64,000 nt of DNA from Batillaria attramentaria (Eukaryota; Mollusca; Gastropoda; Batillariidae), in contig JACVVK020000164.1 of NCBI GenBank assembly GCA_018292915.2, forward strand, positions 454,501-518,500. Reading direction: 5' to 3'. A program made the translations under genes and the position numbers. The notes beneath the pieces are model-generated. The model did no database searches. It saw nothing but the letters and a program-made list of their open reading frames with translations, and was not told the DNA's origin. Every line of letters begins with the position of its first letter. Within the stretch, counting starts at the first letter, position 1. Positions 3,509 through 23,457 of the stretch are shown piece by piece.

Positions 3509-3643
3509 AGGCGGCAGGTCCCACTCCTCTCCCTCCTGGAAATTGTCGTACATCTCCTGCATGACGAACTTGCGGTTCAGGAACTTCTCCCGCGACCAGA
3601 TCCACTCGTGTTTCGTCTCCAGATTCGTCACACGGATCATCAC
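3509..3643 (-). CDS. Kinesin exon 17 (last exon in window)
   Basis: [20 protein letters not shown] then [20 protein letters not shown] and WDLPP before GTAAGT. The frame is open at the donor, so the protein continues in exons beyond the window. Confidence 0.88.
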
Positions 3644-6042
3644 CTGATTGTGATAGAGAAGATAAGATACACGCTATTGTCTCAGCTAAGAAATTTGTTG
3701 TGAGAAGATGAAAGCATACAGATTAAATTTCACCTATGGGTACATGTTCTTACTTTGGACAAGTCCATGATGGGAACAAAATCAGAGGATGAAACACACA
3801 CACAAATGGGTACAAAACTGAGACGGACGCTGTAACTTGTAAGGAAAGAAACACTGCATGCATGAGAATGTGGAAAAACAAATGATAAGAAAAAGAGGCT
3901 GAGGTGTAGGAAAATAAAAGGGAAACTGAGAGGACGCATCTCTAGCAAAATCTGCACACATACAAATTAGAACTGTGAGAAGTATATGTCTTCATGTTCT
4001 GCCTAAATGACTGGTGTAAATTTTGTCAACGTTGCTCGTAGCTAGACATGCACAATCCTCACTACTTGAGACCAGATGCCACAGCTGCATACACACCTCA
4101 AGGGCCAGTGCCAGAGAGTTCAATAAAACGAATCAGACATGCAACATACCTCTGTGCGGCCTTTCAGTTCTCCCCTAGCCTCCGGAGAGACGACCATCAG
4201 CTCGAACTTCATCTTCTTCTCCAGGTCCTCTGATATCGAGTTGGCCTGTTCTACGGCCGGCATCAACTCCATGATGTCCTCTTGTAGCAGATTCTCATCT
4301 GCACAGACAGGCATGCAGAAAATGAAGTGATGTGTGAAGGGAGTGAAAATCAGCACTGACTACTTTACCAGGCTGGCGAATTGCTGAGGGAAAAACAGAT
4401 TGAAATGTAGACTAGGGTGAAGAGGCAGCGCCCTGCAGGGGGACCACGGGGGCAATGCCCCACTTTGAGAAAATAAATTTTAGCGTTTTTAAAGGCAGCC
4501 TCTCCTGGCACCCAAAGGTGAAATACTACTGCCTTGATACTGAGATGCAAGAATTGTCAAATGAAGTTAGACTGTCCCATATAACATTACATGTATCATG
4601 CTACATACAGTATGTCGTCAGTGATTTAACATACTTGCCCATCTCATTTTTGCCAACTTTTCAGGAGAAGCAAAAAACTGAATTACTTCCCTTCCACCAT
4701 AGCAAATGCTTATTGCTCTGTGAATCAAATAATGAGTCTTCTGATTGGTGGATGCTCAAATCGAAAGGTCAGCTGATGTAACAGGTCTGCCGAAAGCAGA
4801 CCGTGTCTGCACTGCAAAAATGCCTAAGTCTGAGATAGGCAAATATGTTAATTTCAATCACTGACGAAGTGCAACCTTTTTCCTCCTTCCTCTTCTTGGC
4901 TGAAACCTAGATTTTTGGGCTGAAAATTGCCAAATGACTGAAAAATCCCCAGCCTGCTTTAAATTGTAGTAATGTAGCAGTGAAGCATTAGCTAAAGTTG
5001 TTTGCTGGTGAAATTACAGTGACCAGTAAGTTTTCAGTGTGGAACTAACCCAAAACAACTTCCAGATGATAACAAACTGCTTTTGCATGCCGCATTGTTA
5101 AAACTGTCAGATTCTATCGAACTAATAATTCAGCTCGCCTACCTCTTGATTTGTTTTCCATGTTGACGTCAAATCCAGACCGTTTAGCGATTTCCTCCTG
5201 GGCCATTTCAAACGTCACTTCCGGCCACGGCTCCTTCGCTGCGTCACGCTCTGCAGGGTTGCAGAAGACGAAGTACTGGGTGGTGCCGAAGACAATTCTG
5301 CGACAAACGGTATTAGAAGCATAATAACACCATGATCATGTACAAATAACAGAGTTAAATAAACAAAAGTTATCTACTAAATCGATCAAGTTTTAATTTC
5401 AAGGATATCCAGACATGGAACAAACTGTCATGCAGATGAGAAATCAGTGGTACAGCTTTGATACAAAGGCACTACCATACAGGAAGACATTGTTTGTTAC
5501 GCCTAGGGTGAGGTGCGAATTCCTCTCCCAAATACCCCTGGCTTCCCCTTCCAACCATGCACACACACACACACACACACATGTGCGTAAACATTTTTGC
5601 TACTTTCACACCTGTCATTGTGCTTGAGTGGCATCTTGTTGACGACGGCCTTGCCGTTCAGCAGAAGTCGCATGTTCTGCTCCAGCGGTTCCAGAGAGTA
5701 CTTGCCATCAGCCTCCTGCCGCAGTTCCGCATGACGGCCCATGATGCTAAAACGCACAACCGAGATGAAACAAAGGTCAGTAAGTAATACAGATATGTTT
5801 ACAACAGACTAGGGGACTAAACAAAACAAACAACATTAACAACAATAAGAAGTACACAAAAATGTGTGTTTAGGGTTTTATAATCCTCCCTTTTTTTTTT
5901 TAACCCTTCTCCCTCCTCCTGTCTTCCATGCAGAAAGCGTGCTCACGATGCATTTGGAATCGGGAAAAGGAAGTGGAAAAGAACAAGACCGAGAGAGACC
6001 AATGAAAAACAAACAACAATAAAAAAAAAAATAGAATCTCAC

Positions 6043-6096
<54 letters not shown>

Positions 6097-9000
6097 CTGC
6101 AAAAGCAATAAAATACACAACAGACGGAAAATAAATTTTGTTTTGTGTGTGTCTGTGTGCGTGTGTGTGTTTGTGTATTTGTTGTTTGTTTGTTGTTTAT
6201 TTGTTTCTAGCGGATCTGTCTTACCCTGGTCCCTTCAGCACAATCTCTGTACTCTCCTCACGGCCGTTTCCAATGGTTTTCTCTGGTTCATCGATGAAGT
6301 GGACGATGTGACCACACAGCTGGGGATCCATATTCAGGTTGTAAATGTGAGGCACCGTTTTCCTCTTCTCTGCAATCTCAGCAGCGTGGGAGTCTCCCTG
6401 TGTGAAAAAGCAACTATGTATTCCCGTTCACGAATAGAAACACAGGGGCTTTGTATCCATGCCAGACATTCGTCGCAGGAACCAGCGGCCAAGCAGATCC
6501 TGCGGAGGAAGTGGGGCTGGACTGGACACACCCTCAGGAAGCCAGCATCCAGCACCACACGCCAAGCCCTGACATGGAACCCACAGGGGAAAAGGAAGAG
6601 AGGCCGGCCTCGCAACAGCTGGAGGCGGGACACTGAGGCAGAGTTATATAAGCAGGGGACCAAATGGACTGGAGTGGCAAGAATAGCCCAGAACAGAGTG
6701 CGATGGCGAAGGGTTGTCGATGGCCTATGCTCCACGTGGAGCCAGGGGCCTAAGTAAGTAAGCAGACATTCGTCACAGACTGATTCTCTTTCAAAATGTC
6801 AGATTACTTTCTTACAAAGGTGGACATGTTTTACCATATCTGCACCACAGTGTACAATATTCAGCACAAATGTCCTATACTGTTACAATCAGCCAGGACA
6901 TGTCCTGTTAATAGTTCCCAAAGAAATGAAGCCCTTCATTAGCTTTTACACACATTTTTAAAGATGCATTCTGCAGGTCTTTAACCTTTACGCATCGGGA
7001 CGCGAACCGGCTCGCGTCACTCTCAACAGCTGTAGGCACCGAGCCACGAACCGATTCGCGTCATCCTAAACGGCCAGCAGCTGCATGCGCGTCAGCAGGG
7101 AAGTAGGTCACTGGCCAAGCTCGCGATGTCAAAGAGTTAAAGCGCACAGATCGACCTAGGCTTATAGCAGTGACAAGAATGTGATACCGTTCAGATGTGT
7201 GCAAAATAAGAACCAATTTGAGGATGCGGTTGCTAAGATATGAGCTAATAGCTGAACCAAGACATGCGCCTGCCGCCCACTTCACTTGCAAGTGAAGTGG
7301 TGCTTTTGTGTGAAACAGGCTATAGCTAAGGCCAAGTGCTGTCTCAGTGCAACTCACACGTGGTTGCTGGCAACATTACAAGTTTACAAAAGCTCGACAA
7401 TACACTTTGGAAGGACCACTGACTCAGTACTGGCAGCATCTGTGCAAAGCACGTTTTTGACATGGAGGGCGTTACTCATCCCGCAGGGTGCCGCTTAGGA
7501 CAACGACACAAACCCAGAAAAACAATCCCTGCGGTCACCTACCCCAGCGAGCTGTGCTTCTTTGAGGCGTTCCTCGAAAGTTTTCTGCATCTCTTCCATT
7601 TCTTTCTGGTTGTTCTCCAATCTGCTCTGGTACTCTTCCTCCATTTCCTCCTTCAGTTTGGCCAGCTCTGCAGGCAGAGAACAGGTGCATGATTCACTTG
7701 TCATCCATTTTGAAGCGTCAACACACAGCCACTGCAGCAAGTGACTACAGCAGATGTTAAAGCCTCAATCTGCTTGTCAGGCATACAACAACTGTGCATC
7801 AAAAACAGTCACTTGTCACAAGATATAACAGACCACCTGGAAGATTTGCAAGATAAGGCAGCTTCTGAAGCAGTAAAGCCGCTGGCAGGGATGATCTATT
7901 TTTAGAAATGTATACATGTACTAACAGCAATACATTCAGAACAGAAAATCACTGCAAATTCGAAGAAAGCCATACTTCTCTAATGTTAGAAGCCGCAAAG
8001 TTCAGAAAAAGGTCTTCATACCCTTTTGAGCATCACGTCTTTCAACAAACGCCCTAAGAACTTTGTAAGTGGGCATATTTCTTCCACCATTCAATGCCCT
8101 CTGTCCAACATTTCTAAGATCATAATTTATTTGGAGCTGCTTTGGCAGCTAGGATCATAACAGTTAGACACATAAGCAGCGACAGCCCAACACCGGTAAG
8201 CATCGAGCAGACATGAACCTAGCATTCAAAATACCGGATGGTGGACCCCTGATATGGAGTGAGGCTGGATGTGTTAAATGCCACTGGAAGGAGGCTGGTT
8301 ACCATGGAGATTGGAATGTTTGACAGCTGGCCTTGTCTCAAGCGCTGATTCTTGTACATGTACTTTGCCAGCCAGCAATGCGATAAATTGCTGAATAAAA
8401 ATTACAATATGGTCTTGTGTATTAGTCTACAAGAATAAATGTCCTTTCTCTTATGTATGGGTACTACGTTTGTATGTATGTGCACCCGCGTGTTTACTGT
8501 AACATGAAAAGTGCTGGTTAGCCAAAAAGTTGGGGGGGGGGAGGGGGGTTCAAAAGTCTTGCGGTATATTTTTCTGAGGTTTCGTTGTTGCTATTTTTGT
8601 TTTAAGCAATCATTTTTCTCAACAAACTGGCTTTTTTTTTTTTTAAATTGTTTTCCTCTTCTCGGCCATCTCGGCAGCGTGGGAGTCTCCCTGTGTGAAA
8701 AAGCAACTATGTATTCCTGTTCACGAATAGAAACACAGGGGCTTTGTATCCACGCCAGACATTCGTCACAGAAACCAGCGGCCAAGCAGATCCTGCGGAG
8801 GAAGTGGGGCTGGACTGGACACACCCTCAGGAAGCCGGCATCCAGCACCACACGCCAAGCCCTGACATGGAACCCACAGGGGAAAAGGAAGAGAGGCCAG
8901 CCTCGCAACAGCTGGAAGCGGGACACTGAGGCAGAGTTATATAAGCAGGGGACGAATTGGACTGGAGTGGCAGTTGTTCCCTCAAAGCGCTTTGCTACGA

Positions 9001-12000
9001 AATAGTGGACATGAATATGAGCTCTTGAAGCTACAAAAGTGAATATCAGTATCATCATCATCATCATCATTTACCAGCATCAGAGAGTTCCTCGTCATCA
9101 TCTTGCATGACCTCCATCTTGACGTTGCCTGCCAGCATGGCTTTCAGTTTCTCGTTCTCCTCCTGAAGTTCACGGATCAGTTTATCGGTCGGGTCCTCGT
9201 TCACACTGGCCTTGGTCTTGATCTGTTTGGCACGGTCAGCTGCAGAAGAAAGAAAGAAAGGGGAAAAAAAATCAATCAAATGGTCCATTATCCAAAAGGA
9301 AGAATAGCATGTTGCATTTAGTGACAAAGCGGCAAAGCCATGGGTGCACATCTCCAAAGCAGATGTGTCATGCCAGCACGTGGTGTCCAGCAGATGTGTC
9401 ATGCCAGCATGTGGTGTCCAGCAGATGTGTCATGCCAGCACGTGGTGTCCAGATTTTTTTTAATTTTTTAATGAGGCTAAAATATATGCAATTTGATGCA
9501 TTTTGGCATGATTTTAGTGCATCAGAGCAAGAAACACTTTGCAGAGGAAAGTTTTAAAAATTACACTAAAATCTGCACAATTTGGTGCATATTGGCATGA
9601 TTTTAGCGCATCAGAGCAGGAGACACTTTGCAGAGGAGAGTTTTAAAAATTACACCAAAATCTGCACAATCTGGTGCATTTTGGCATGATTTTATGTGCT
9701 TCAGAGCAGGAGACAATTTGCTGAGGGAATGTTTTAAGAATAAGACGAAAATTTGCACAATTTGGTGCATTTTGGCATGATTTTGGTGCATCAGAGCAGG
9801 AGACACTTTGCTGAGGAATGTTTTCAGAATAAGACTAAAATCTGCACAATTTGGTGCATTTTGGCATGATTTTATGTGCTTCAGAGGTGGAAACAGTTTT
9901 TGTGGGGAGGAAAATTTTTAGCCAAAGGTTGAAATCCACCAAAAGGTGGCCGATATTAAGCCCTGCTCACTTCAATTTCACCTATTTTCTCCTCACCAAT
10001 GCAATTAAAAAGATTCTCAAATTCAGACCTAGGTTCAAATTGATGTGCAGGGGTAACACTTTCAAATTTTGAAAAGACTGAAACCCATGTCGGGGTGCAG
10101 GGGTCAGGGGTGAATTTGAATGAAAAGTTTTCTCACCGTATCGCAGAGTTGACAAAGTTTCTTCATAGTTGATGTCAGCAGGACTCAGCGCAGCGATCTG
10201 GGGAAGAAAAGATAATTGAGCCATGTTGCACTGAGAACGTCGTCAACTCTAGATCAAAAGCTACGCAGACCTATACAAAGCAAGCCTTTTTGTTGTTATT
10301 GTTGGTTTTCTGTGTGTGCTTTTTTTGCCATTCAAAATATACAGGACCTAAAAAAAAAAAAAGAAAAGACAATTAACAGCATCAAAATGACCAAGATTTG
10401 TTTATTTGTTATTGCCTTTTTGAAAAAGCAGCTTTTATGAAGGTTGAAAGGCAGATATAGAACAAAAGGGATTTGATGCAGCTCAAAAGAATGCCACAGG
10501 TCTAAGTATAAGAAGAACTATCTCACCATGATTGTCTTGCTGTTGCCTCCAAGAGCGTTCTTCAGTAGTTTGGTCAAGGACGAATCTCGGAATGGGACTG
10601 AAACATTCAAAAGGTTACAGCTCTGGTGAAAAAGATAGGCCCAATAAAGTCTCTCAAGATCCAAAAAAAAAAAAAAAAAAAGCAACCGCACACAAAAACA
10701 TGTTTCCATATTTCATTACTCTTCCATTCCAGAAGAAGAAAGAAGAAAAAACAAAAAACCGGTCCCGCAGTGAAGCGGTTAGCACTTCGGACCATGGACC
10801 GGGAGACCCGGGTTCGAGTCCCAGCCAAGGCAAGCAGGATTTTTCCTACCTAGGTTGGCTCCTACCCAGAGCGGGTGTGCTACGGGCCCGATGGGGAGGC
10901 TGTTGACACACAGCCAATATTCACATTCTTCACGGGTGCGACTTTGGGGGTGCTTCCCTTGGTATGACACATCTTATGATGTGGATGATTTGATTACATG
11001 GCCGGCACCGCAGGTGCCGCAGTTACCGAGCCTGGTTAATGCCGGGATATTTATGAGAGGAAGCATGGAATGCGGCCCTGTCCCGCAGTCCCAAACCACA
11101 CGGACCTCCATAGCAAAAATTGCCCCAGCTTCCGAGCCCTCCGTGGATTCCACCCATGACCTGGGAGGAACACGACTGGAACTGGCGAAAGAGTTGGGGC
11201 AGCAAAAAAAATAAAAAAATGCAGCATGTCTGTGATCTTACTTTCTATTCACACTAAAAGAGTATGAACTGGTATCTTGACTAGCAGAAAAAGTTGACAG
11301 CAAAGACTAGTTTCAAAGTCTAAAATACCACCAACAGTGCTGAAAACACATATTAATAAATACTTGTACCAGACAGACACAATTAGAAACTTATCTAATT
11401 AACAATTTAAGACGGATAATCCAGTATATGATTTCACGCTGACTTACCTTTCACGTTCTTTCCTGATGACTTCTCGGCCAGGGCGGAGATGCAGTTGCCG
11501 AGGCATGACAGGGACTGGTTGATGGCAGCTCCCTCTTTGAGACGGTCGCCTGTGGCCCCAGTGCTGTCCGCACGCTCACTAGAAGAAGAAAAAAAATGCT
11601 CAATATGATTTTCTTTTTTGTTTTTTTTTTCAGTGGCAGGATACATTCAAACAGAGTGGAAGCAAAACTTGGTCTGGTTTCTAAGTCTGACAGCTTTCTG
11701 ACAGTCACATTTATTTAACTGCACTATTAAAGAGACACATGTTAACTTTATGTGATACCTTTTAGAGTTTTTCGGTTATTAATCCATTTTGTATTTATGT
11801 GTTTGTATATATATTTAAGTTTTCATGTTTAGGGAGTGCGTGAATGTGTGTGCGCATCAGAGTGAGTGGGTGTTTGTGGGAACGTAATATTTTTTTTATC
11901 AAAGAAGAAGAAGGCATTGTAATCTCCCTTTTATGGGATTGAATAAAATAAACTAGTGTCCAAAAGAAACGATACCAAAGTGATCCCAGAGGCCTAAAAA

Positions 12001-13259
12001 CATAGGTCTACGTATCCCACGTCCCAAATACAGCATCTGCGCTCGGGAATACCGGAAACATTTGCTAATGAAATATACCACTCTGAAATTTCTGTATTGT
12101 TCTGCTTTTATTGTATGTCCCTGCCAACCCTTGGTATCGTTTCTTTTGGACACTAGTTTATCTTACGTCTTATGTCTTTTCAACCCTAACAGACTCTGAG
12201 ACTGGCCAGGACAATTTAATATGACAAATGCATGACCCCACTAAAAAAAAACTAGAGAGGCAGAAGCCTCCATGGCTCCCTTGTGACACAGGTCAAGGTC
12301 ATTCACAAAAGTATGTTTGTAGAGCTCTTATCACTATCCAGTATCATGCTAAGTGATGTGTCTGGCGCTCTGAGTTCCTGGCAATATTACAATTTCCCCA
12401 AAACAGTTTGTACAGCCTTGACCTTTGGTCAAAGTCATTCAAAAGAGATCTCATCAATGTCTATCATCATGCCAAGTTTGATGCCTCTAGCATTTGTAGT
12501 TCCTCCGAAAACAGTAATGTTAAAATTCACAACAGACAGCTTTAATGACCTTGACCTTCAGTCAAGGTCATTCAGAAAGGTAGGTCTCATTGCTGTCTAT
12601 CATCACGCCTCATTTGGTGCCTCTACTGTTTGTTGTTTTGAAGAAAATGCCAAGGTTAAAGTTTCCACACAAAAAAAACCGCTTGCATGACCTTGACCTT
12701 GACTAAAAGTCACTGAACACAGGTATGTCTGTAAAGGTGCTGCCAATGTCAATCATCGCACATAGTTTGATGCTTCTGATTCTTCTAGATACTGATAAAA
12801 TGCAAATGTAAAATTTCCGAACACTGTTTCAATGACCTTGACCCTCAGTCAAGGTCATTTAAGATGGTATGTGTGCATAGGTCTTATCACTGTCTATCAG
12901 CATGCCAGGTTTGGCACCTCTGCTGTTCATTGTTTCTGAGAAAATGCCAATGTTAAGGTTTCACAAAACTGTCTTGTACGGCCTTGACCTTGACAGAAGG
13001 TCACTGACTACATGTATATCTGTAAAGTTCTTATCAATGTCTATCATCATGCAAAGTTTAAAACCTCTGGCATTTGTACATTACGAGAAAATGCCAATGT
13101 AAAATTTTCAAACAGAGAGCTTTAGTGACCTTGACCTTGGGTCAAGGTCATTCAAAATGATGTGTTTTGAAAGGTCTTGTGCTAGTCTATCAGCATGCCA
13201 AGTTTGGTGCCTCTACTGTTTGTAGATTCTGAGAAAATGACAACGTTAAAGTTTTCTGG

Positions 13260-13306
<47 letters not shown>

Positions 13307-16300
13307 GACAGACAGACAGACGACGGAGGGTTAATACATAGACTCCCATTGTTACACAAGGGAGCCAAAAATCAAAGCATAAAGTGCACAAAAACATTCA
13401 TGGTAATGATTGGAATACGCCTGTTTCCAATATTTCAGGAAGTTGAAAGTAAACAGTAAACACACCTGCCGGCCAAATCCACCAGGTTGATGACAGCTGA
13501 TTTTGTCGTGTCTTCCCCGGCTGCATTCTTAAACTTCTGGAGGAAGGTGATGCCGACAATGGTGTGTGCACGACTGCAAGCAAATAAAACAAAAAGGAAA
13601 ACATTTTTTATCTTTTCCGAAATCAATGCACACAGGCGATCAATCATAAAAAGCAAAGATGATTAGGGATCACTGATGGGCTGTTGGTGTTTTTTGGGTT
13701 TGTGTGGGGTTTTTTTTGTTGTTGTTGTTTTTGTTTGGTTTTTTTTTTTTGTTTTTTTTTTTGGGGGGGTGTTTTGTTGTGTTGTTTTGTTTGTTTTGCT
13801 TTTTTTAGGGGGGGGGGGGGTTGTTTTGGTATTTGTTTTTTGTTTTTTTTTAATTCTATTTTATTATATTGTGGGGTTTGTTTTGTTGTTGGTCTTTTTG
13901 TTTGTTTGCTTTTATTTTATTTTCTTTCTTTCTTTTTTTTTTCTTTGGGGGGGGGGGGGGGGCACTGTTGTCAGTGTTTCCTACAGACACTCCAGTGCAA
14001 AATGTATGTTGTTACAACCCCTCACCTTGGTTGTGCTAATTATACACCCCTCACACTTGACTGAACAGGCCCACTGTACATAATTTACCTTTGACCGTTC
14101 CGGTCCACTGCCTAATCCAAAACACCTACCAGTACCACACACATCTGTAGCAGCCGACTGTGTTGTACATATGACTCTTACCCAGTAAAGCCACAATAAA
14201 TGGTCACGGTCAGTTGTTGTGAGCCAAATCCTACTCCCTTTCAATAGAGGTTTGACTAATCAATGAAGCAGAAACCTTTTGCCTGGTCACAGAACGATCT
14301 GATAAAAGCCATAAAAAAGCCAGCAGAAGTGGGGTGTAACAGCAGTAAAGAATCAATGTGCCCCCTGGGTAATGCTGTATGTGTACTAAAAGCTCTCTCG
14401 GAAGATCAATGAATTAGAGTATGGTTCAACTGCTTTTGCTTTTAGTCACACACACACTAAACAGTGAACAGGTATTGGGGGGAAAAAAAAGTTGTCTGAG
14501 AGTGGCTTTAGTACCAGAGAGGAAAACTGGGAGTTTGTGTACATGTATGCTTAAGTTCATAGCCGTGAGAACAATTATCGGACAACATACAATTGTCCTG
14601 CATGTAAAACTTTTTTCTTCTTCTTTTCACAAAACAACGGAAAAACAAACAACAAATGCATAAAAACATGGCAGGAATTGGCCTAGGGGCAGAAAAAAGT
14701 CTGACTGATATGTGATACATGTACTGTTAAACTGTCCTGTTTGTTCCACTTCTTTTTCTTTTCTTTTTTTCCCCTTGATGTCAGTGTCAGAAAAACAAAC
14801 AACAAGAAGAAAAAAAACGGCAGAAATTGGCCTAGAGGCTGCAGAATTCCAAGAAACGGCGGAAATTTTTTTAAGTTTTCCAATGACAATACACAAAAAT
14901 GATAGCATTAGCTCCAGCTGCACATGTTGCTATAACAACAAGCACGTTCTCCGGTGTCACTGGAATCCAGGTGACACAGACAAAATGAACTCCCTTTTGT
15001 TCGCTCCACACAACGATGGTGTTACTGTAAGACTCACTAACGCCCAGGTCCCTGCCTTGTGTCTCAATGTAAAATATTCATGCATCAGCTGCCCTGCTTC
15101 CAGCAGACTACGCGGTTTTAGTTCACCATGCAACAGATACTGACCACAGTTGCTGGTGATTAAATCAACGCAAGGAGACACAATTTCTGGCCATTAAACT
15201 ACAATGTATGAAGTGTCTATCTCCCCACCCGCTCTCTCTCCCTTGAAATATTCAAGCCTCTGATGCCGAACACCATGAAAATATTGTGAACTAAAAGACA
15301 AAAAGCTCCAAAATGATTGAGTGCAAATGGGTTTTTAATGTCCCCCAAAAGATCGTCAATCTTGTTAGGGGATGGCTAGCGGCTGTCAGACTATACCATG
15401 AGCTCAGCCACAAGAAAACGGTACATTAATTAATTCTAAAAGGGTTTAGCGCAAATAACCTCAAGCTGAATCACCCCCAGCAGACAAGAGCAAAGAACTG
15501 ACAGCATAACAACCGCACGGCTGTCATTAGGTGCACTCCCGTATGCAAAGCAGGGTTTGGCTGCACCGACAATGGCCGGAGCGTGACGTAAGCCAGTGAT
15601 CACATGTCAATATTTACGTCCAGCCATGGCAGCCTATTCAGCCGGGTCAAGCTAAACAGACTTGGCTGCACGCTCAGGGCAATGGCATTTGTAAACGCGT
15701 GTGAAATCGATTCTGGGTGATGTAGATTCTTTGCTATTTTAGTACAATAGCAATATCCAGAAACCATGCTATAGGTAGGTGGGGGTGGTACTGCCGCGGG
15801 GCGATGTAAGGCACTGCTGCACTAATTTACAGAAGAATGTATTTTCACCTTTTTTTCATGTAATATGTGCACCAGCCCTAAACAGTTTCAAAAATGTCCT
15901 CGATAGGGAACCTCAAATTACCAAATTGTGCTATGTATATATACATACATGAGTAGCGTTAAATGTTGAACCTGTACTTCATCATCACAGACCCTTTCTA
16001 TCTGTTGTACGGTGGGACAAGTAAGGCCTAACGGCAAGTAGTCCCTATGCCTATACTATTGCCAAACATGTGTCCCCAGGGCAAGCAAAACCTGTTTTTT
16101 TGTTGTTGTTTTTTTTACTTTATTATCCCTTTTGGGAAATTCGGGCTGCGTCCCACGGCGGAAGCGTGTCGCCGCGGTGCAGCGCCACCCAATACCTATC
16201 CTATACTTTTTTTTACAATTTTGCTGGGGGAGGAAAGCCGGATAACCCGGAGAGAAAGCCCCGATGAGCAGCCCGGTAGCTGGGAAACCTTATCCTTATA

Positions 16301-19300
16301 GCTAGGGTCACAACCGGCCGTACGGGCTCCTACGGCGGGTCTACGGCCAAAAATCGTGGCAAATCTTGCGAACGGCGCACGGGCGTCCTGCGAAATTTCG
16401 AGGCCGCAAGGATGCCGCAGAGCGCTGCGGCCGGTTTTCGACAAAATCAACAAACTCGACGATCACCTGCGATTTTTTACACACTTGCGTTGGCCGCACG
16501 GCCACTGTACGGCCAACGCACGATTGCCGCAAGTGCATCGTACGACCTGGACATCTCCGGGAGAGAAAAATAGGTCACGATGGCCGCACGATGAACGCAC
16601 GAGTGACGCACGGTTGTCTTGCGTGCTTCCCACGAGGACTGCACGATGGCCGCACGTGATCACAGACCGCAAGTCGGTAGTACGATGTTCCCACGATGCA
16701 CGCACGTGCTCCGTGAGTGCTCCGCAAGGCTGACGCAAGACCACGTGCGGGCCCGGGGGATGTTGGTGTGCAATGTAGAAGTGTTGGTGGGGCGGTCGGT
16801 GGTCTAGTGGTTAAGAGACTTGTCACCAATGCGAGAGGTCACGGGTTCGAGCCCCACTCGGGGCAAAGAATTTTTCCTTCTCGTATGTGGCACCTTTCAT
16901 TCGGGCCGATCGTCGGGGGTTCTCTCCGGGTACTCCGGCTTCCTCCCCCTCTGCTTTGGAAATGTTCAGCCCACCAAGTTTGAAAAATAAATGCATGTCT
17001 AAATTCCGAAATTTCAATAGCTGAGCTGACCCTTCGCACCACGTGATTGTAATACGTTTATGTCCTGTGTGTGAGAGAATGCGTGTGATTCACGTGAGCG
17101 TGCGTGTTGGGTTTAGCTCGCGGCGCTTTGAGCCAAATATTTGGGATAAAGCGCCTATATTAATGCGATTATTATTATTATTATTATTATTAAGTGTTGC
17201 AGTGCTGTGTCAGTGTCTGTCAAGTTGTGTACGTGTCCATAGATTTGTCAAACTCTCTGTTGATAATATCCAAATCCTCTGATGTCTTCTTTCCATAAAC
17301 AAACTACATGTATATAATTATGTAGGCTGGTCCCTATATGCATGAAAAACGCGCGTCGGCCATGGCCGTCGAACGACCGACGCACACCACGCGTACAGAG
17401 CACTTACGATAGCCGTACGGCGCACGCACGACACCCGTACAGCCCGTGCAAACAACGTCAACATCGCACGAACGTCGTACGAAGGCGTGCGACCTCCGTA
17501 CGATAACTGCGAGGACAACGTAGGATCCGTACGGCCGTCGTACGATTTTTGACCAACTGAAATCGCAAGACGTTACCCGTGCGAGACTTGCGGGGAACGT
17601 ACGCCATCGCACGTATATCGTACGCACGATTTGCAACCTTAATTTTTTTTTTCAGATCGTAGAAGCCGCAGGCCGCAGACATTTCGTGGAGATTGCAAGC
17701 ATAAAAAAATCGTGCGGCCGGTTGTGACCGAGGCCTTAAACAGGATGTAATGAAGTACTGACTAAAAAGTGTAGGTGTATGTTCTTTTCTCAAGGGGGCT
17801 AATGTACCATCTCCATGCTCACAGATCGTTCTAAGCTTCTTCTTTGTGGTATCTGTCATCACACCATTTAGACACCTGGACAGTGACAGCTTCTGTAACG
17901 CTTGGTACTGAGACAACTGAAGCATACTTCATGACGTTGCGACCACAATGAGCGCTCCAGTACTGTAACAACAGTCGTAGGATTTGAATGTTTGACTGCC
18001 CACGCACAGTGTAAACAACACAGTATCGCATGAAGAGCTGTACTACCGGTACTCAAGATGGAGTACTTTTGAGTATACACTATAATACAGGCATACTCAC
18101 AAGCGAAACAGTTCCAAAACATAAGTTGGCTCAGCAAAAAAATGGAAACTTTTTGCCCAATTAAGGAGAGAATGTTGCGGCAGGTTTTATTTGTTTGTTG
18201 TTTTTTTTTTCTTTTAAAACTTTTTATCTGTTCATTTCACTTTCTCCACATCTGTTACAATTACCAATGAGGTAACTGTATTAATGTGTCTTTGAATGAA
18301 CAAAGATTCTTTCTGTCTGATTCAAGAACAGCCCTGTCAAGCAGCCACAAACCTCACAAATCAATTTGACCACAGGTGTAATAAAAGAGAACATAAGCTG
18401 CCCCCAAACTGCTTGATTAAACATGGCTAGGCCACGGAGGACCACGCATCCACAGTACGCGCTATCAAGTCATTACAGAAGGGCAAGAGTCATGTTTTAA
18501 CACAGAGCACAAAAGTTCAGTAGCGTGAACTACATAATACAACTGTACATACATGTATACATGTACTAGCACTGTATCAAATGACAATTTGACAAATTTA
18601 TGTGAACGTCCACGAGAAAACCCGGCGTAAGACGCACGCAGCTGTTCCGAGCTAGAGGCTAACAAAGGTCAGTGGGTACAATCTGGTCAATATTGAGATT
18701 TTGCCAAAATCAGGTAGTTCTGATCATCACATCATTAAATTATGATGTCTCAAAAGGAGTTTTTTTGCACTGTAAAGCAAGGCTGTTTCTTTAAGATGGC
18801 TCCAAAAACAAAAAATTGAAAATTTTGCTCTCAAGCCGGGTTTTCTCATGGAACTTTGGAAGGTCACAAATGTTAACTGAGCAGAGTAGGCATCAGTGTG
18901 TTTGGGAAAATGTGATGGTGCATGTGGATGAGGACAGTGGCAGGGGGTATGGTCTGGAAGGAGGGGCTATCATGCCAAGAGAACATTTGATCAGATGAAA
19001 CTGTGGCAGAAGAACGGACTAAGTGGGAGAATATGGCACAAACTTCAGTTGTCAGTGACTACATGGAATAAACAAAAAACCCACATTTTTACCCAAAGGT
19101 AAATAAAAGCAACTAACTTGCAAGTAAAATGACACCATTTTTTTTTATTCGTAACTCCCAGTTTGGAAAAAGAAAGTGTGCATTTGGTTGTTTTATTGGG
19201 TTTTTTAATTTTTTAAAAAAATGTATTTTAACACATGTTCACAATTTTAGACTGACCAGAGATTAACCACTCATCTATCCACTGGTTATCAACAACAATA

Positions 19301-20893
19301 AGTTTCAAGTTTTCCCTCACAAATCGACAAATAGCTGTGGCTGGGAAGGCAAAAATGTCACACTCCAAAACCAAATGTACACATTTTTAACATTTTACTG
19401 GTGGTGGTGGTGGTGTTGTTTGGGTTTTGTGTGAATATTTATGTGCGTGCATGAGATTGCTTGAGTTATTCATTGTCAAAATCATTCTCACCTGCTGGTA
19501 GCGTTCATGTTAGTTGCTGCTACTGTTCTGTTTGTTGTTCCTTCTTCCATTCTCTTCTCAATATCTGCGTAACTCACAACTGGAACAATCTGTAGTCCGT
19601 CCGCTGTAAAATAATAAAAGAGTTTAAGCTCCTGGAAAGCAATAATGAACAGCAGATGAACTAACGAAACACACTGACAAGGTTTTTTTTGTTTTGTTCT
19701 TTGGAAGGGGGTGGTTTTGTCTCCTTTCTTTTTGTTTTTGGGGTTTTTATATTGTTGGATTTTTTCTTTGGGGGTGGGGGGATTGGAGGTGGGAATATTG
19801 TAGAAGAAGCGCCATCATCAGCTTCAAGAAGTGCCTGCCTTCCACGTTGAATAGCAAAAAGATTACAAAACCAAGCACAGCTTGCTCACCGTAGAAACCA
19901 GTCTTAGGATGCTGGCGAATACGCAGACCTCCCTTCTTGGACCCGCCCTTAGGATCGAGAAGATCTCGCACTTGTTCATTGTAAATTTCCAACATGCTGA
20001 AGTTCACCTGCGATCAAAACACCCAAACAAAATTTTAAACACAAAGTCCACTTCCACAGCACGGAAGTGCTCCATGAAAACAGTTCATGTTTGCTGTGCT
20101 TACAGCAGAGAAGAAGAAGAAAAAAAATGGCCAACAAAGAGGAAGAAGAACGTTGGCTGAAACATTTTTTATATGTGTTGAAAACTATGCATTAATAGTG
20201 CAGAAATAGTAACCGTCTCATAATTCTGGCAATAATAAGTGACCCTCCACCACGAAATGAGTCTTCTTGTGCTATTTGTTTATGTTACAAGATGACTCAT
20301 TTCGTGGTAGAGGGTCACAACAATTTATTATGGTATGCTGCGTATTAGTACAGTGTATATGACATGGTGTGCCAATTCCAAAACCCAGGCCGAGACTACT
20401 GACCCCACAATTTGATAAATGACGGTAATTTTTTTTTGTTTTTTAATTGCAGCAGTGGCTGGAGCTCCAACTCTGCTAGGGTAAGTGCAACTCACAAATC
20501 TTCACCATCGCTGAGGAAATGCTATCAACTTTTGGGGAACACATGATACATTTTAATGGTAGTGTTGTAAGTTTCAAAGTCAAACTAAACTACTTTAGTC
20601 GCATGACTACTTAGCAGAGAGTTTAAAATCTACAGTCATCTCACGGTATAACTTATAGTCACTATAACTTCATTCTGCTGCTGACACTCGGAAACTCTGT
20701 ATCCCTCATGTCCGAACAATGACCTTTGGTCAGCGTAGTTTTTTATACCAAGATCCAACTTTTTGGACTGATCTCAGCATCAATCAGATAAGCAGACACT
20801 AAACCATCCTTCGAGCAAAATCTGAAATTGGTGAAAACCCACTTCTTCACTGCCCTCAACCAATAGCTATTGCCAATCATCATCTTGGTGGTC

Positions 20894-20962
<69 letters not shown>

Positions 20963-23457
20963 CGTGCCAGGGCAGCGGAGGCCCTGTATGATGCTGCACA
21001 TTAGTTAGTTTAGTTTAGTCCTCTTTATTCCCTGGGGAACATAGGGCTACAACCACACTTCGCCAGCACACTCGGTTCTGGGACGCTCTCTTTAGTTCGG
21101 TGAGGGCGTCCCTTAAATATTATTATTAACTTTATACCTCAAATTAACTTCAACCTCAATTATTAAGCTTCATACCTCAAATTCTGTCTCCTCCCCAGCT
21201 TCTCTTTTCCCATCAATGCCCTGGAAAATGGCTTCAGTGAACTGAGGCACCACTCCTGCAACACACAAAAAATCAAGGCTTATTCACTTATTCTATAGTA
21301 GTAACAGCCTGTTTACATTTTACCTCCCATTCCAACGCGTATGTCTGCTGTCCGATTCCCTGGGCAAGGTGATGTCAAAGTAAAGTACATCATGTGAGCA
21401 ACACCACTTCCCCTACGGATAAAACCATTTGTGACCCGTTCTCGCGAAAGGGACCGTAAGTCGCACTAGGTCAATCGCCGCTACAGGCATATAAAGAGTG
21501 CCGGGGGTCTGTATGGCGGCCTTGTGACTGTGAGTAGCCAACTTCAACTGCTGATATCTCTGTCAATTTTAGTAGTACAGCTTTCATGCTCATTGAATTA
21601 AACTGTATAACCAGTAGAGTGCAGTGATACATATACTCAAAACTGATAATTTTCGACTTATGGTCCCTTTTGTGAGAACGGGTCACATTTGGCCCACATG
21701 GTGCAATGTGACCAGGACAGCCAGGCAGCTGGTGTTAGATGGACCAGTAGCATCAGTGTAGAAAGAGTTAAAACAATAAAAGGCCATCCTCCACACACGT
21801 CCACATTCACAATCATTCGGAGCTGTGTTGGGTGCGTCTAGCAAAGTACATGTACCACTTAGACAGCCTCACTCAGGTTCACACTGACTAAGCCAGCTAG
21901 TTACCTTTATTAACACCGTAGCCGACGATGGACCAACTTTTTCCGGAACCTGTCTGGCCATAGGCAAACAGTGTGGAGTTGTAACCATTCCAAGCGTTCT
22001 CCAGGATGCCCTTTCCCAGGTCATCATACACACGTTTCTGTGGAAGAAATAGATACATGCAGTACCTTTTGATTTTTTTTTTCCTCCAGCTCCAAGCACT
22101 AATTGCCTATTTCTTTTTTTTAATTAAGATCTGCAACCTTTGTCTGCCTTAATTAATAATAATATTAATGCCTTGCATCTTGCTGCAGTGAAATTAAGGC
22201 TTCAGCCCTCTTACCCCCCCCCCCCCCCCCCCCCACCTCTCCACCCAAAGTACGAGTCCCCTCTAACTCTACCCACTCCCCAAACATCAATTTTAAGTCA
22301 ACTATGAAAACTTATTACTGACGTAATATTTTCCTTTTAATGGTGAACATGGTAAAGAAAATAGAAAGTGCTTTATACAATATTGATAAATAAATAAATA
22401 AATAAATAAATGTCTGTGCCTACTGACCCCAACTTTCTTGACCATGAACCCTGAATCAAACAATTCTCCTTTTGGCCTCAAGTTGTGCATTAGAACAAAG
22501 TGTGTTGCATTTTTCTTCATTTTATATCACACCATCAGTAAGTACCTGGTCAGCAAATTTTCTTCCATTTGCATGAGATGTGTCTGCAGCGTAGTAGCCA
22601 TTGGCGTCTGTTTTGCATCCATCGTGTGACCAGTAGCTATAATCAAAGGTGAATTTCTTTTCGCTGTTGTCACTGGGGTCTGTGATCACAGTGGTCGCTC
22701 CATTCATGTCAATGATGAGCTTGGCATTGCGACTTCTCTCGCGACTGTTGTGTTCACGGTTAAGGATAAAATCTCACTTTTTTTTTTTAACCCTTTCAAT
22801 GCCACACACACTTTGGGTCACTCACAGATAGTATCGCTGAAGATCGCATGGTGTTACCGAGGAAGAGAAACTTACTCTGCCTCTAGAGAGCTTTTTTTAC
22901 AAACACTCGAACAACTGGATTTTGAACAAGTTGGACAAGGGGGCTACAGGTGTAAATCCTGAAATTTTGTGAGCGTGGCAGCGAAAGGGTTAATGTAGAC
23001 TGAAATTTTCTGTCCCACCACTTGATGACAATGATTTTAAAAATATCAGTTAAAAGTAATCTATAATAATGATAATCAAATCTCTTAATTTTTCATCTTA
23101 CAGCTTACATGCCAACTTGGTATGTCAACAAAATGATGACTCGCTAATTTTTATCTCATGACAGGCCTTCCCAAAGAACACAATTACGCAGTATGTACTC
23201 CCAGCAGTGCAAACGGCCTCTTACAGTGCTGAGTAAATACCATGAAAGCGTTTTAGTTACGAAGCTTTAACCAGAACTAAGCGGATCAAGCATGGCACCA
23301 GCAAAGCGAATCGCCCCCGCGGCCATTATGAACTGAAAGTAAAGCAACAGACAGTCTACATACATGTGCATGTGCAAGTGCCCGAAAATTTGTTCAATGA
23401 AAAGGATATGAAAGGTCGCACGCGCACAGCCACCTTTACGTTTTCCTCTTCTGCCAT
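3509..23457 (-). CDS. Kinesin-3 family motor protein with FHA domain, KIF28/KLP-6-like (partial at 3' end)
   Basis: Seventeen minus-strand exons join in a single frame (2103 nt, 701 codons) starting [16 protein letters not shown]. Residues about 6-360 form the kinesin motor. It has P-loop GQTGSGKS, switch I NATSSRAHT, switch II DLAGSE and the microtubule-binding end of the motor [20 protein letters not shown] Glu/Lys-rich neck coiled coil (about 390-450) follows, then an FHA domain (about 465-600) with GRHAEL and a post-FHA region. The P-loop followed by [12 protein letters not shown], and the FHA placement, resemble KIF28/KLP-6 more than KIF1 or KIF13; this is from memory of the families. 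KLP-6 moves ciliary membrane proteins in nematode neurons; a similar role here is inference. The start codon lies in CAGCATGG, with the conserved VAVRVRPF ten residues in. Later exons (tail) are missing from the window. Confidence 0.9.
4150..4298 (-). CDS. Kinesin exon 16
   Basis: [20 protein letters not shown] then [20 protein letters not shown]; post-FHA region. Acceptor TCTGTGCAG, donor GTATGT, ends in phase 0. Confidence 0.88.
4369..4956. mobile_element. MITE family 'CAGGCTGG', copy 1 (intron 16 side)
   Basis: Begins CAGGCTGGCGAATTGCTGA and ends TCCCCAGCCTG, forming imperfect inverted ends, with CTTTAC/CTTTAA flanks that fit a 6 bp target duplication. The body matches 34768-35403 in several blocks, such as CCCCACTTTGAGAAAATAAA and TTGCCAAATGACTGA. 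No coding sequence. About 590 bp. Confidence 0.75.
5143..5297 (-). CDS. Kinesin exon 15, FHA end
   Basis: [20 protein letters not shown] then [17 protein letters not shown]. The last FHA strand (IVFG..YFVF) is followed by the helical extension seen after FHA in kinesin-3. Confidence 0.9.
5612..5746 (-). CDS. Kinesin exon 14, FHA core
   Basis: [20 protein letters not shown] then [24 protein letters not shown] matches the FHA phosphothreonine-binding G-R-x(n)-S/A loop region, with A where many FHA domains have S. Confidence 0.9.
6046..6096 (+). repeat. (CA)n microsatellite
   Basis: A mostly pure CA run with an internal CG patch; a GT-rich stretch follows at about 6145-6175. Lies in kinesin intron 13. 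Confidence 0.95.
6225..6397 (-). CDS. Kinesin exon 13, start of FHA domain
   Basis: [20 protein letters not shown] then [20 protein letters not shown] and [10 protein letters not shown]. Acceptor TTTTTCACACAG, donor GTAAGA. Its first 37 nt and its acceptor are duplicated at 8650-8697. Confidence 0.92.
6479..6762 (+). mobile_element. 5'-truncated LINE fragment with target-site duplication
   Basis: The plus strand encodes [40 protein letters not shown] and [20 protein letters not shown] then stop. This is the C-terminal tail typical of non-LTR retrotransposon ORF2. The 3' end is (TAAG)n. A 16 bp duplication (CAGACATTCGTC[G/A]CAG) flanks it at 6463-6478 and 6763-6778, proving retrotransposition into kinesin intron 12, antisense to the gene. 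Confidence 0.88.
7543..7667 (-). CDS. Kinesin exon 12, coiled coil
   Basis: [20 protein letters not shown] then [20 protein letters not shown]; heptad-like coiled coil rich in Glu and Lys. Acceptor CCTGCAG, donor GTAGGT. Confidence 0.9.
8650..8972 (-). repeat. Duplicated segment: kinesin exon-13 edge, splice acceptor and LINE piece
   Basis: Matches 6358-6679 at over 90% identity. It includes 37 nt of exon 13, its acceptor (TTTTTCACACAG), intron sequence before the LINE, the LINE's left target duplication and most of the LINE. It ends inside the LINE and is followed on the minus strand, after the exon piece, by an A-rich tract. It sits in intron 11. Confidence 0.85.
9075..9239 (-). CDS. Kinesin exon 11, neck
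   Basis: [20 protein letters not shown] then [18 protein letters not shown] and an acidic tail [11 protein letters not shown]. Covers the neck linker and first neck helix. Confidence 0.92.
9359..9450 (+). repeat. 31 bp tandem repeat x 3
   Basis: The unit CAGATGTGTCATGCCAGCAC plus GTGGTGTCCAG is repeated three times with a single A/G change. Confidence 0.9.
9478..9905 (+). repeat. About 90 bp tandem repeat x 4.7
   Basis: TTTGGTGCATTTTGGCATGA recurs at about 9492, 9581, 9671, 9761 and 9850 (period 89-90). Each is followed by GCATCAGAGCAGGAGACA-like sequence and TTTGCTGAGG. Lies in intron 10. Confidence 0.9.
10137..10197 (-). CDS. Kinesin exon 10
   Basis: [20 protein letters not shown]; end of the motor core. 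Acceptor CCCCAG, donor GTGAGA, ends in phase 1. Confidence 0.94.
10527..10597 (-). CDS. Kinesin exon 9
   Basis: [20 protein letters not shown] then KTIM; the conserved PFRDSKLTRLL-type helix of kinesins. Donor GTGAGA. Confidence 0.94.
10762..11214 (+). mobile_element. tRNA-derived SINE, family 3 (about 450 bp)
   Basis: The head shows a Pol III A-box-like AGTGAAGCGGTTAGCACT and B-box GGTTCGAGTCC 33 nt further on. A long unrelated body and an A-rich AAAAAATAAAAAAAT end follow. Only copy of this family noted in the window. Lies in intron 8. Confidence 0.7.
11448..11578 (-). CDS. Kinesin exon 8
   Basis: [20 protein letters not shown] then [20 protein letters not shown]; switch II end and helix 4. 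Acceptor TTCTAG, donor GTAAGT. Confidence 0.94.
11951..12158. mobile_element. Tc1/mariner-type MITE, 208 bp
   Basis: Perfect 28 bp inverted ends beginning AACTAGTGTCCAAAAGAAAC, flanked by TA on both sides. The core GTCCAAAAGAAACG is shared with the termini of the Tc1-like element at 38038-39731, suggesting mobilisation by a related transposase. Confidence 0.85.
12273..13367. mobile_element. Terminal-inverted-repeat element filled with about 140 bp tandem repeats
   Basis: The ends TGGCTCCCTTGTGACA and TGTTACACAAGGGAGCCA are inverted copies. Inside are about seven diverged units of 130-148 bp with shared phrases TCTATCATCATGCCAAGTTT and CTGAGAAAATGCCAATGTTA. Each is punctuated by TGACCTTGAC/GTCAAGGTCA blocks. 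A CA/GACA microsatellite lies near the right end (13260-13321). No transposase. Lies in intron 7-side sequence of the kinesin gene. Confidence 0.8.
13466..13573 (-). CDS. Kinesin exon 7, switch I/II
   Basis: [20 protein letters not shown] then [11 protein letters not shown]. Completes switch I and carries most of switch II. Intron 6 before it is about 5.9 kb, the largest intron fully inside the gene. Confidence 0.94.
13684..13962 (+). repeat. T/G low-complexity tract with G runs
   Basis: Long T and GTTT runs with G10-G16 blocks at about 13807-13820 and 13947-13962. Apparent open frames here are only low-complexity Phe/Gly/Val strings. Confidence 0.9.
14000..16300. other. Kinesin intron 6 sequence with no recognised gene
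   Basis: Ordinary intronic sequence. Two short near-copies of the passage GGCAG[A/G]AATTGGCCTAG occur at about 14670 and 14819, each next to AAAACAAACAACAA. Nothing else recognised. Confidence 0.6.
16306..17729. mobile_element. CpG-rich inverted-repeat element with nested SINE
   Basis: The outer ends GGTCACAACCGGCCG and CGGCCGGTTGTGACC are perfect inverted repeats. The interior (16306-16760 and 17335-17729) is extremely rich in CGTACG, CGCACG and ACGG motifs, unlike the AT-rich surroundings. A family-2 SINE (16787-17191) interrupts it. No transposase frame recognised. Confidence 0.75.
16787..17191 (+). mobile_element. tRNA-derived SINE family 2, full copy A
   Basis: The head contains A-box-like GTGGTCTAGTGGTTAAGAGA and B-box GGTTCGAGCCC. 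The body includes GGGGGTTCTCTCCGGGTACT, CTTTGGAAATGTTCAGCCC and GCGTGATTCACGTGAGCG-type sequence. The 3' end is GCGGCGCTTTGAGCC...AAAGCGCCTAT then (ATT)n. Flanked by AAGTGTTG duplications (16779-16786, 17192-17199). Confidence 0.88.
19492..19603 (-). CDS. Kinesin exon 6
   Basis: [20 protein letters not shown] then [14 protein letters not shown]; leads into switch I. Acceptor TTTTACAG, donor GTGAGA. Confidence 0.93.
19890..20007 (-). CDS. Kinesin exon 5
   Basis: [19 protein letters not shown], the diagnostic kinesin EIYNE..RDLL stretch, then a Lys/Gly-rich loop GGSKKGG. Acceptor ATCGCAG, donor GTGAGC. Confidence 0.95.
20239..20318. repeat. 80 bp hairpin (MITE-like)
   Basis: GTGACCCTCCACCACGAAAT and the mirrored ATTTCGTGGTAGAGGGTCAC form 25 bp arms with one mismatch around a 30 nt loop. 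It starts GTGACCC like the element at 21430. Confidence 0.85.
20897..20959 (+). repeat. (GT)n microsatellite
   Basis: About 31 nearly pure GT units in kinesin intron 4. Confidence 0.97.
21000..21116 (-). mobile_element. LINE 3'-end fragment
   Basis: The minus strand reads [20 protein letters not shown] then [12 protein letters not shown] and stop. It aligns with the [15 protein letters not shown] end of the LINE at 6479. The tail is (TAAAC/TAAC)n. Severely 5'-truncated. Confidence 0.7.
21176..21255 (-). CDS. Kinesin exon 4
   Basis: [20 protein letters not shown] then GEETEFE; motor helix 2 region. Acceptor GTTGCAG, donor GTATGA. Confidence 0.92.
21430..21686. mobile_element. 257 bp MITE with 33 bp inverted ends
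   Basis: GTGACCCGTTCTCGCGAAAG at the left mirrors the right end (about 21654-21686) over 33 bp with three mismatches. It is flanked by ATTT on both sides. No coding sequence. Confidence 0.85.
21905..22037 (-). CDS. Kinesin exon 3, P-loop
   Basis: [20 protein letters not shown] leads into [19 protein letters not shown]. This is the ATP-binding P-loop exon. Acceptor TTCCACAG, donor GTAACT, ends in phase 1. Confidence 0.95.
22381..22411 (+). repeat. (AAAT)n microsatellite
   Basis: AAATAAATAAAT run in kinesin intron 2. A C18 homopolymer at about 22217-22234 is nearby. Confidence 0.9.
22546..22749 (-). CDS. Kinesin exon 2 (residues 17-84)
   Basis: Starts [17 protein letters not shown] and ends FADQ before GTACTT. 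Covers the early motor core, including [12 protein letters not shown]. Confidence 0.9.
22750..23409 (-). other. U12-type AT-AC intron (kinesin intron 1)
   Basis: The 660 nt intron begins ATATCCTTTTC, the textbook minor-spliceosome donor. It ends with TCCTTAACCGTGAACAC, where TCCTTAAC matches the U12 branch-point consensus about 11 nt before the terminal AC. Splicing here restores the conserved kinesin joint RPF|NSRERSR in phase 0. A GT-AG alternative would lose the asparagine and break the frame. Confidence 0.88.
23410..23457 (-). CDS. Kinesin exon 1 (residues 1-16)
   Basis: Encodes the start Met through RPF, the first beta strand of the motor. It ends with TTC directly followed by ATATCCTTTT, a U12-type AT donor instead of GT. 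Confidence 0.88.

What the first reader, a model, noticed from the sequence alone, without database searches (positions are those of the whole stretch)
22750..23409. AT-AC (U12-type) first intron in a kinesin-3 gene
The intron starts ATATCCTTTTC and ends TCCTTAACCGTGAACAC. Donor and branch point match the minor-spliceosome consensus, with about 11 nt from branch point to AC. Only this splice gives the universal kinesin joint RPF|NSRE. Standard gene finders that demand GT-AG would lose exon 1 or shift the start. It ties this motor's expression to minor-spliceosome activity.
Basis: partly seen in the sequence, partly recalled or inferred. Interest (0 to 1): 0.8.

Follow-up and report, generated by a model that had tools for sequence, protein, structure and literature searches.

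The report
Ancient AT-AC intron in KIF28 gene
A snail motor-protein gene contains a rare kind of intron that gene-finding programs often miss, and traces in database proteins suggest the same intron sits at the same spot in many animals, so many deposited versions of this protein lack their first piece.

Summary
Confirmed and extended. On the minus strand at 22750-23409 a 660-nt phase-0 intron starts ATATCCTTTTC and ends TCCTTAACCGTGAACAC. Removing it gives ...[14 protein letters not shown]..., colinear with C. elegans KLP-6 and KIF1A. In my 17-exon model of this KIF28/KLP-6-type kinesin-3 gene the other 15 introns have good GT-AG pairs; this one has none in the range searched. The genome (by assembly statistics Batillaria attramentaria) has U11, U12, U4atac and U6atac genes. 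A second KIF28 gene has an AT-AC intron at the same codon boundary with the identical 11-nt donor. Deposited annotation of both genes loses the joint. In 13 database proteins reading back into the intron, the residue before the joint is H or Y (NAC codon) in 12; of 9 long enough, 8 can encode TCCTTRAY 9-12 nt upstream (1-2% expected). They come from molluscs, an annelid, arthropods, anthozoans, a placozoan and a sponge-like transcript, in both KIF28 types, so the intron probably predates the cnidarian-bilaterian split. Splicing in Batillaria RNA was not seen, no DNA of other animals was read, and a regulatory tie to the minor spliceosome is inference.

The parts
23410..23457 (-). Exon 1 coding part, [16 protein letters not shown] (strand beta-1 and the RxRP motif, names recalled); no upstream in-frame ATG before the in-frame TAG
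22750..23409 (-). AT-AC U12-type intron 1, 660 nt, phase 0
23399..23409 (-). 5' splice site ATATCCTTTTC, identical over 11 nt in the paralogue's intron
22759..22766 (-). Branch site TCCTTAAC (presumed branch A 22760)
22750..22751 (-). 3' terminal AC
22546..22749 (-). Exon 2, [17 protein letters not shown]...FADQ
3512..22037 (-). Exons 3-17 of the KIF28/KLP-6-type kinesin-3 model (rest of motor, coiled coil, FHA), all introns GT-AG; some boundaries differ from the deposited model (17 gaps); the 3' end beyond 3512 was not modelled

Best explanation
This is a genuine U12-type (minor) intron of the AT-AC subtype, between the codons for RPF and NSRE in a KIF28/KLP-6-type kinesin-3 gene. By the established mechanism, U11/U12 would recognise ATATCCTTT and TCCTTAAC together, U6atac would replace U11 at the donor, and the minor spliceosome would remove 660 nt, joining strand beta-1 and the RxRP motif to the rest of the motor. 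If the intron were retained, the frame would run 17 codons into a stop, giving no motor. Shown here: the sequence, the frame, the snRNA genes and the paralogue's intron. Inferred from proteins: position and subtype are old, shared by both KIF28 types and by anthozoans, a placozoan, a sponge-like lineage and bilaterians. Not shown: splicing in RNA from this species, dependence on U12, and any regulatory role.
For: Exact motifs and frame. No good GT-AG alternative in the range searched while the other 15 introns have one. Joined exons align without a gap at the joint to KLP-6 (8e-22) and KIF1A (3.4e-17). The 700-aa model matches KLP-6 over model residues 3-700 (654.9 bits). U12 127.8, U11 94.2, U6atac 94.0 and 92.2, U4atac 68.7 bits, all above cut-off, with the pairing stretches of U11, U12 and U6atac present. 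Paralogue intron C563:114918-114393, 526 nt, ATATCCTTTTC...TTTGTCCTTCACTGAACACAC|AAC, same codon boundary; the best shared stretch by blastn is the 11-nt donor (E 0.12), the rest E 1.5 or worse. Proteins with only lgn/jgi sources, on contigs about as long as the coding sequence and so read here as spliced transcripts, carry the RPF joint in 46 of 48. Read-through N-termini: 12 of 13 end in H or Y; 8 of 9 testable are compatible with TCCTTRAY 9-12 nt upstream, against 2.1% of random 10-mers from the same proteins and 1.3% of random open window pieces. Tree: a 99/95 branch divides the KIF28 types, and each side holds anthozoans, a placozoan protein and bilaterians.
Against: No RNA read of Batillaria spanning 22749/23410 was available. 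Phase 0 is a minority phase for minor introns (about 22% on average in PMC10639083, passages seen). The paralogue's branch site (TCCTTCAC) departs from TCCTTRAY by one base. One read-through protein (Elysia marginata, P0177) has K before the joint, so that intron probably ends in AG. P0033 (only PY) could be exon 1 sequence, and P0082 is a chimeric model that fails the branch-site test. Exon 1 is absent from 2 of 48 transcript-like contigs (P0075, P0204). The tree's root is not fixed.
Confidence: 0.95

Rival explanations
1. The junction is a normal GT-AG (U2-type) intron and the AT-AC motifs are coincidental; VAVRVRPF is on another small exon or is joined through a cryptic GT.
For: The deposited annotation does not use the AT-AC joint (P0001, P0200). 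Loose U12 donor/branch pairs occur by chance in 64 of 100 simulated windows.
Against: The best GT-AG combination in the range searched scores -6.5 and would not give the conserved joint. The paralogue repeats the identical donor. Relatives' read-through residues are NAC-type, not NAG-type, in 12 of 13. 46 of 48 transcript-like contigs carry the joint.
Confidence: 0.02
2. An AT-AC intron removed by the major (U2) spliceosome, as known for a few AT-AC introns.
For: Termini alone do not fix the class (established knowledge, recalled).
Against: The strict U12 donor ATATCCTTT, TCCTTAAC with its A 10 nt from the end, no pyrimidine tract between branch site and AC, and minor snRNA genes present.
Confidence: 0.02
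3. A pseudogene or assembly artefact with a fossil first exon.
For: The deposited model is marked partial.
Against: An open 700-aa model over 17 exons with GT-AG at the other 15 introns and similarity to KLP-6 over model residues 3-700; an independent gene with the same intron.
Confidence: 0.01

Closest known systems
U12-type AT-AC introns (minor spliceosome introns)
   Same: Donor, branch site, branch-to-AC spacing and AC terminus; snRNA genes present
   Different: Phase 0, the minority phase for this class; immediately follows the first coding exon of a kinesin. My searches listed no paper whose title or abstract start reports one in a kinesin gene
KIF28 / C. elegans KLP-6 (kinesin-3)
   Same: Motor, FHA, conserved N-terminal joint; KLP-6 is the best solved-structure match
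   Different: The klp-6 gene's introns were not examined; C. elegans lacks the minor spliceosome (recalled)
Other kinesin loci of the same genome (C243, C282, C190, C90, C12)
   Same: Similar N-terminus (for example [30 protein letters not shown])
   Different: C243, C282 and C190 have no intron at the joint; C90 has a GT-AG intron two codons later; C12 has a GT-AG intron 8 nt later in another phase
[quoted passage not shown]
   Same: AT-AC introns kept within a gene family
   Different: Here a motor protein, first coding junction, traced outside Batillaria only through mis-annotated proteins

Membership tests
U12-type AT-AC intron | 5' splice site matching RTATCCTTT | tested here: met
   ATATCCTTTTC at 23409
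U12-type AT-AC intron | Branch site TTCCTTRAY-like, about 10-20 nt from the 3' splice site | tested here: met
   TCCTTAAC at 22766-22759, branch A 10 nt from the end
U12-type AT-AC intron | AC terminus giving the correct frame | tested here: met
   RPF|NSRE, colinear with KLP-6 and KIF1A
U12-type AT-AC intron | U11, U12, U4atac, U6atac in the genome | tested here: met
   pairing stretches of U11, U12 and U6atac
U12-type AT-AC intron | Spliced RNA across the joint | tested here: inconclusive
   Not seen for Batillaria; 46 of 48 transcript-like contigs of relatives carry the joint
U12-type AT-AC intron | Loss of splicing when the minor spliceosome is blocked | not testable with these tools
   needs experiment
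KIF28/KLP-6 kinesin-3 | Kinesin motor followed by FHA | tested here: met
   PF00225 336.4 bits, PF00498 40.7 bits
KIF28/KLP-6 kinesin-3 | Closest to KLP-6/KIF28 rather than KIF1 or KIF13 | tested here: met
   654.9 bits to KLP-6 against 381.3 to KIF1A and 356.6 to KIF13B; best-listed named relatives are KIF28/KIF28P
KIF28/KLP-6 kinesin-3 | MATH domain at the C-terminus (reported for KLP-6) | not tested
   my model stops at 3512

The most novel reading that the evidence does not exclude
The AT-AC intron at the beta-1 joint was fixed in a single KIF28 ancestor before the type A/type B duplication and before cnidarians and bilaterians separated. It has been kept in both types because it works as a gate: no functional motor is made unless the minor spliceosome removes this first intron, which would couple output of the KIF28/KLP-6 motor (linked to cilia in C. 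elegans) to minor-spliceosome capacity in many animals.
Probability: 0.2. Interest if true: 0.7.

Novelty: new member of a known kind. Interest (0 to 1): 0.55.

Why it matters
If right, KIF28 is a further gene family carrying a very old minor intron, in the first coding junction and in phase 0, the phase that one theory holds minor introns lose most by conversion (Moyer et al., as told in PMC10639083). Two paralogues that kept the same AT-AC subtype make a natural test of why minor introns persist. Practically, 68 of 143 genome-derived KIF28 models in my sample lack or garble the exon 1/2 joint, so trees, domain counts and constructs based on them start without beta-1 and RxRP. The residue run that intron read-through leaves before the joint (such as FLN..H, ILN..H, SLT..H) offers a simple way to look for missed AT-AC introns in protein databases. 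KLP-6 works in cilia (PMC9314371, passages), and loss of a minor-spliceosome protein disturbs cilia (PMC13216214, passages; kinesin and KIF occur 0 times in its main text), so KIF28 is a candidate to examine.

Tried and rejected
GT-AG alternatives for the junction were scored and rejected. A Pfam scan of exon 2 alone found nothing, probably because it is short. I considered that the joint intron might be shared by kinesin-3 genes generally; the five other kinesin loci returned do not have it. No vertebrate name stood in the three listings of 120. Literature: 'U12-type intron' + kinesin + AT-AC gave 0 papers; 'U12-type introns' + kinesin 4, 'minor intron' + kinesin 10 and KIF28P 15: listings with titles and starts of abstracts seen, bodies not read, none reporting a kinesin minor intron there. 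Main-text counts: kinesin and KIF 0 in PMC7367187, PMC6865273 and PMC13216214, kinesin 0 in PMC10639083. Supplementary tables could not be read, so the intron may be listed in one.
Full report
What is there. Reading the minus strand, exon 1 ends GTGCGCGTGCGACCTTTC and is followed at once by ATATCCTTTTCATTG; 660 nt later comes TTTTATCCTTAACCGTGAACAC and then AACAGTCGCGAGAG, which is NSRE. Joining at AT...AC gives [33 protein letters not shown]. phmmer against solved structures puts C. elegans KLP-6 first (8e-22), then KIF1A (3.4e-17); the printed alignments run through the joint without a gap. The upstream frame closes with TAG at the 19th codon above the ATG with no other ATG between, and reading into the intron ends after 17 codons.

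Gene model. From stop-to-stop frames I assembled 17 exons, 23457 down to 3512, coding 700 aa. With hand-set splice-site weights the 15 introns after the first have a best GT-AG pair scoring 4.7 to 10.4; the best pair found for intron 1, in the ranges searched around the two exons, scores -6.5. The model has a kinesin motor (336.4 bits) and FHA (40.7 bits) and matches KLP-6 over model residues 3-700 (654.9 bits). Against the deposited protein it is 96.3% identical over 699 columns with 17 gaps, so some of my exon boundaries differ from the annotation. The nearest named relatives are KIF28/KIF28P of other gastropods.

Where the window comes from. The assembly has 863 contigs and 715,342,989 bases, and the window's contig is 1,288,332 bases long. 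The Batillaria attramentaria genome paper gives 863 contigs, 0.715 Gb and a contig N50 of exactly 1,288,332 (PMC10382545, passages seen); its stated total, 715,684,482, differs slightly. The protein database lists 'BaRGS_00021280, partial [Batillaria attramentaria]' on a contig of that length (P0001).

Machinery. The genome carries U12 (C160, 127.8 bits), U11 (C21, 94.2), two U6atac (C331 94.0, C72 92.2) and U4atac (C23, 68.7), all above Rfam's cut-offs. The alignments of U11, U12 and U6atac show the pairing stretches: U12 GAGUAAGGAAAA, U6atac AAAGGAGAGAAGG, U11 AAAAGGGC (which stretches pair is recalled).

The second copy. A protein search of the genome found another KIF28-type gene on C563. 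Its exon 1 reads [15 protein letters not shown] and is followed by ATATCCTTTTCTAAATT; exon 2 (NSREINRNA) is preceded by TTTGTCCTTCACTGAACACAC. The intron is 526 nt at the same codon boundary. A blastn comparison of the two introns finds the identical 11-nt donor (E 0.12) and otherwise only short matches of E 1.5 or worse. Five other kinesin loci came up: C243, C282 and C190 run through the joint without an intron, C90 has GTAAGT two codons later, and C12 has a GT-AG intron 8 nt later in another phase.

What annotation did. P0001, the deposited protein of the window gene, begins RERSRNA, so exon 1 and the first two residues of exon 2 are missing. P0200, the C563 protein, begins MTEENVRVATTIKNPED, a join inside both exons. 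The genome paper used Augustus and EvidenceModeler with transcript and homology support (passages). The 209 proteins listed in three searches were aligned at the joint and sorted. 'Joined' means RPF (once RPM) directly before the joint, even if the N-terminus above is short. Of 48 whose only sources are lgn/jgi with contigs of about 3-6 kb (read here as transcripts), 46 are joined and 2 lack exon 1. Of 143 anchored on genome contigs (both Batillaria proteins included), 75 are joined, 56 are truncated or garbled (a few lack more than exon 1) and 12 read back into the intron. Of 18 with no contig given, 11, 6 and 1. These are the best-listed 120 per search, not the whole family, and ordinary first-exon loss was not controlled for.

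Traces of the intron in other animals. In the 13 read-through proteins the frame continues upstream of the joint. If introns there ended in AG the residue before the joint would be K, E or Q. Instead it is H in 10, Y in 2 and K in 1, as expected for NAC. Nine have ten residues upstream; 8 of these can encode TCCTTRAY with its end 9-12 nt before the joint: LFLNDFH, FLNSNPH, SLTRAH, SLIPEH, ILNSLLH, FLNISH, SLTDSH and ILNSTK; in the window the same frame reads ILNREH with 9 nt. The rate for random 10-mers of the same proteins is 2.1%, and for random open pieces of the window 1.3%. By their database names the 13 are Potamilus, Lottia, Magallana gigas and Elysia marginata (molluscs), Capitella (annelid), Macrobrachium, Panulirus and Centruroides (arthropods), Nematostella twice and Paramuricea (anthozoans), Trichoplax (placozoan), and the unnamed P0205, which groups with the sponge Corticium at 100/99. 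Weak members: P0033 shows only PY and could be exon 1 sequence, P0082 is a chimeric model, and P0119, P0144 and P0198, like P0033, are too short for the branch-site test. The Elysia protein keeps the branch-site trace but has K, so its intron probably ends in AG.

Age. A tree of 42 motor-region sequences is divided 21 to 21 by a branch of 99/95 support; each side holds anthozoans, a Trichoplax protein and bilaterians, with the window gene on one side (type A) and the C563 gene on the other (type B). The tree has no outgroup and is rooted for drawing only; the two sponge-like sequences Corticium and P0205 and the Nk52 sequence (an ichthyosporean, recalled) fall on the B side. Read-through traces occur on both sides: P0063, P0082, P0108, P0119 and P0186 on A; P0123, P0144, P0147, P0177, P0198 and P0205 on B; P0028 and P0033 were not in the tree. 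The simplest reading is one AT-AC intron present before the duplication, hence before cnidarians and bilaterians parted. This rests on proteins; DNA was read only in Batillaria.

Known or not. AT-AC U12 introns are a known class. Molluscs are among protostomes with relative enrichment of minor introns, about 22% of minor introns are phase 0 on average, and the same paper says many minor introns may be unannotated in many genomes (PMC10639083, passages seen). My searches listed no paper reporting a minor intron in a kinesin or KIF28 gene (main-text counts), but most bodies and all supplementary tables went unread and may list it.

Function. Exon 1 supplies beta-1 and the RxRP motif of the nucleotide pocket (recalled), so without this splice there should be no working motor. 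Whether that makes the intron a regulatory gate is untested. [quoted passage not shown]

Noticed in passing
window 6357-6656 and 8650-8949: A 300-nt direct repeat, 97% identical; one copy covers the 3' splice site and the first 41 nt of my KIF28 exon 13, the other lies in intron 11: probably a recent local duplication of an exon start.
   Followed up: partly
window 38213-39281, minus strand: Tc1/mariner-like transposase broken into two overlapping frames (HTH_Tnp_Tc3_2 48.3 bits, DDE_3 36.6 bits).
   Followed up: partly
P0177 (Elysia marginata): Read-through N-terminus keeps the branch-site trace (ILN) but has K before the joint, suggesting an AC to AG change of the intron end.
   Followed up: no
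G000 C563:114393-114918: AT-AC intron of the second KIF28 gene has branch site TCCTTCAC, one base off TCCTTRAY, and ends ACAC.
   Followed up: partly
P0205: Unnamed protein from a Trinity-style transcript name whose open frame seems to retain the intron's 3' end; groups with a sponge.
   Followed up: partly
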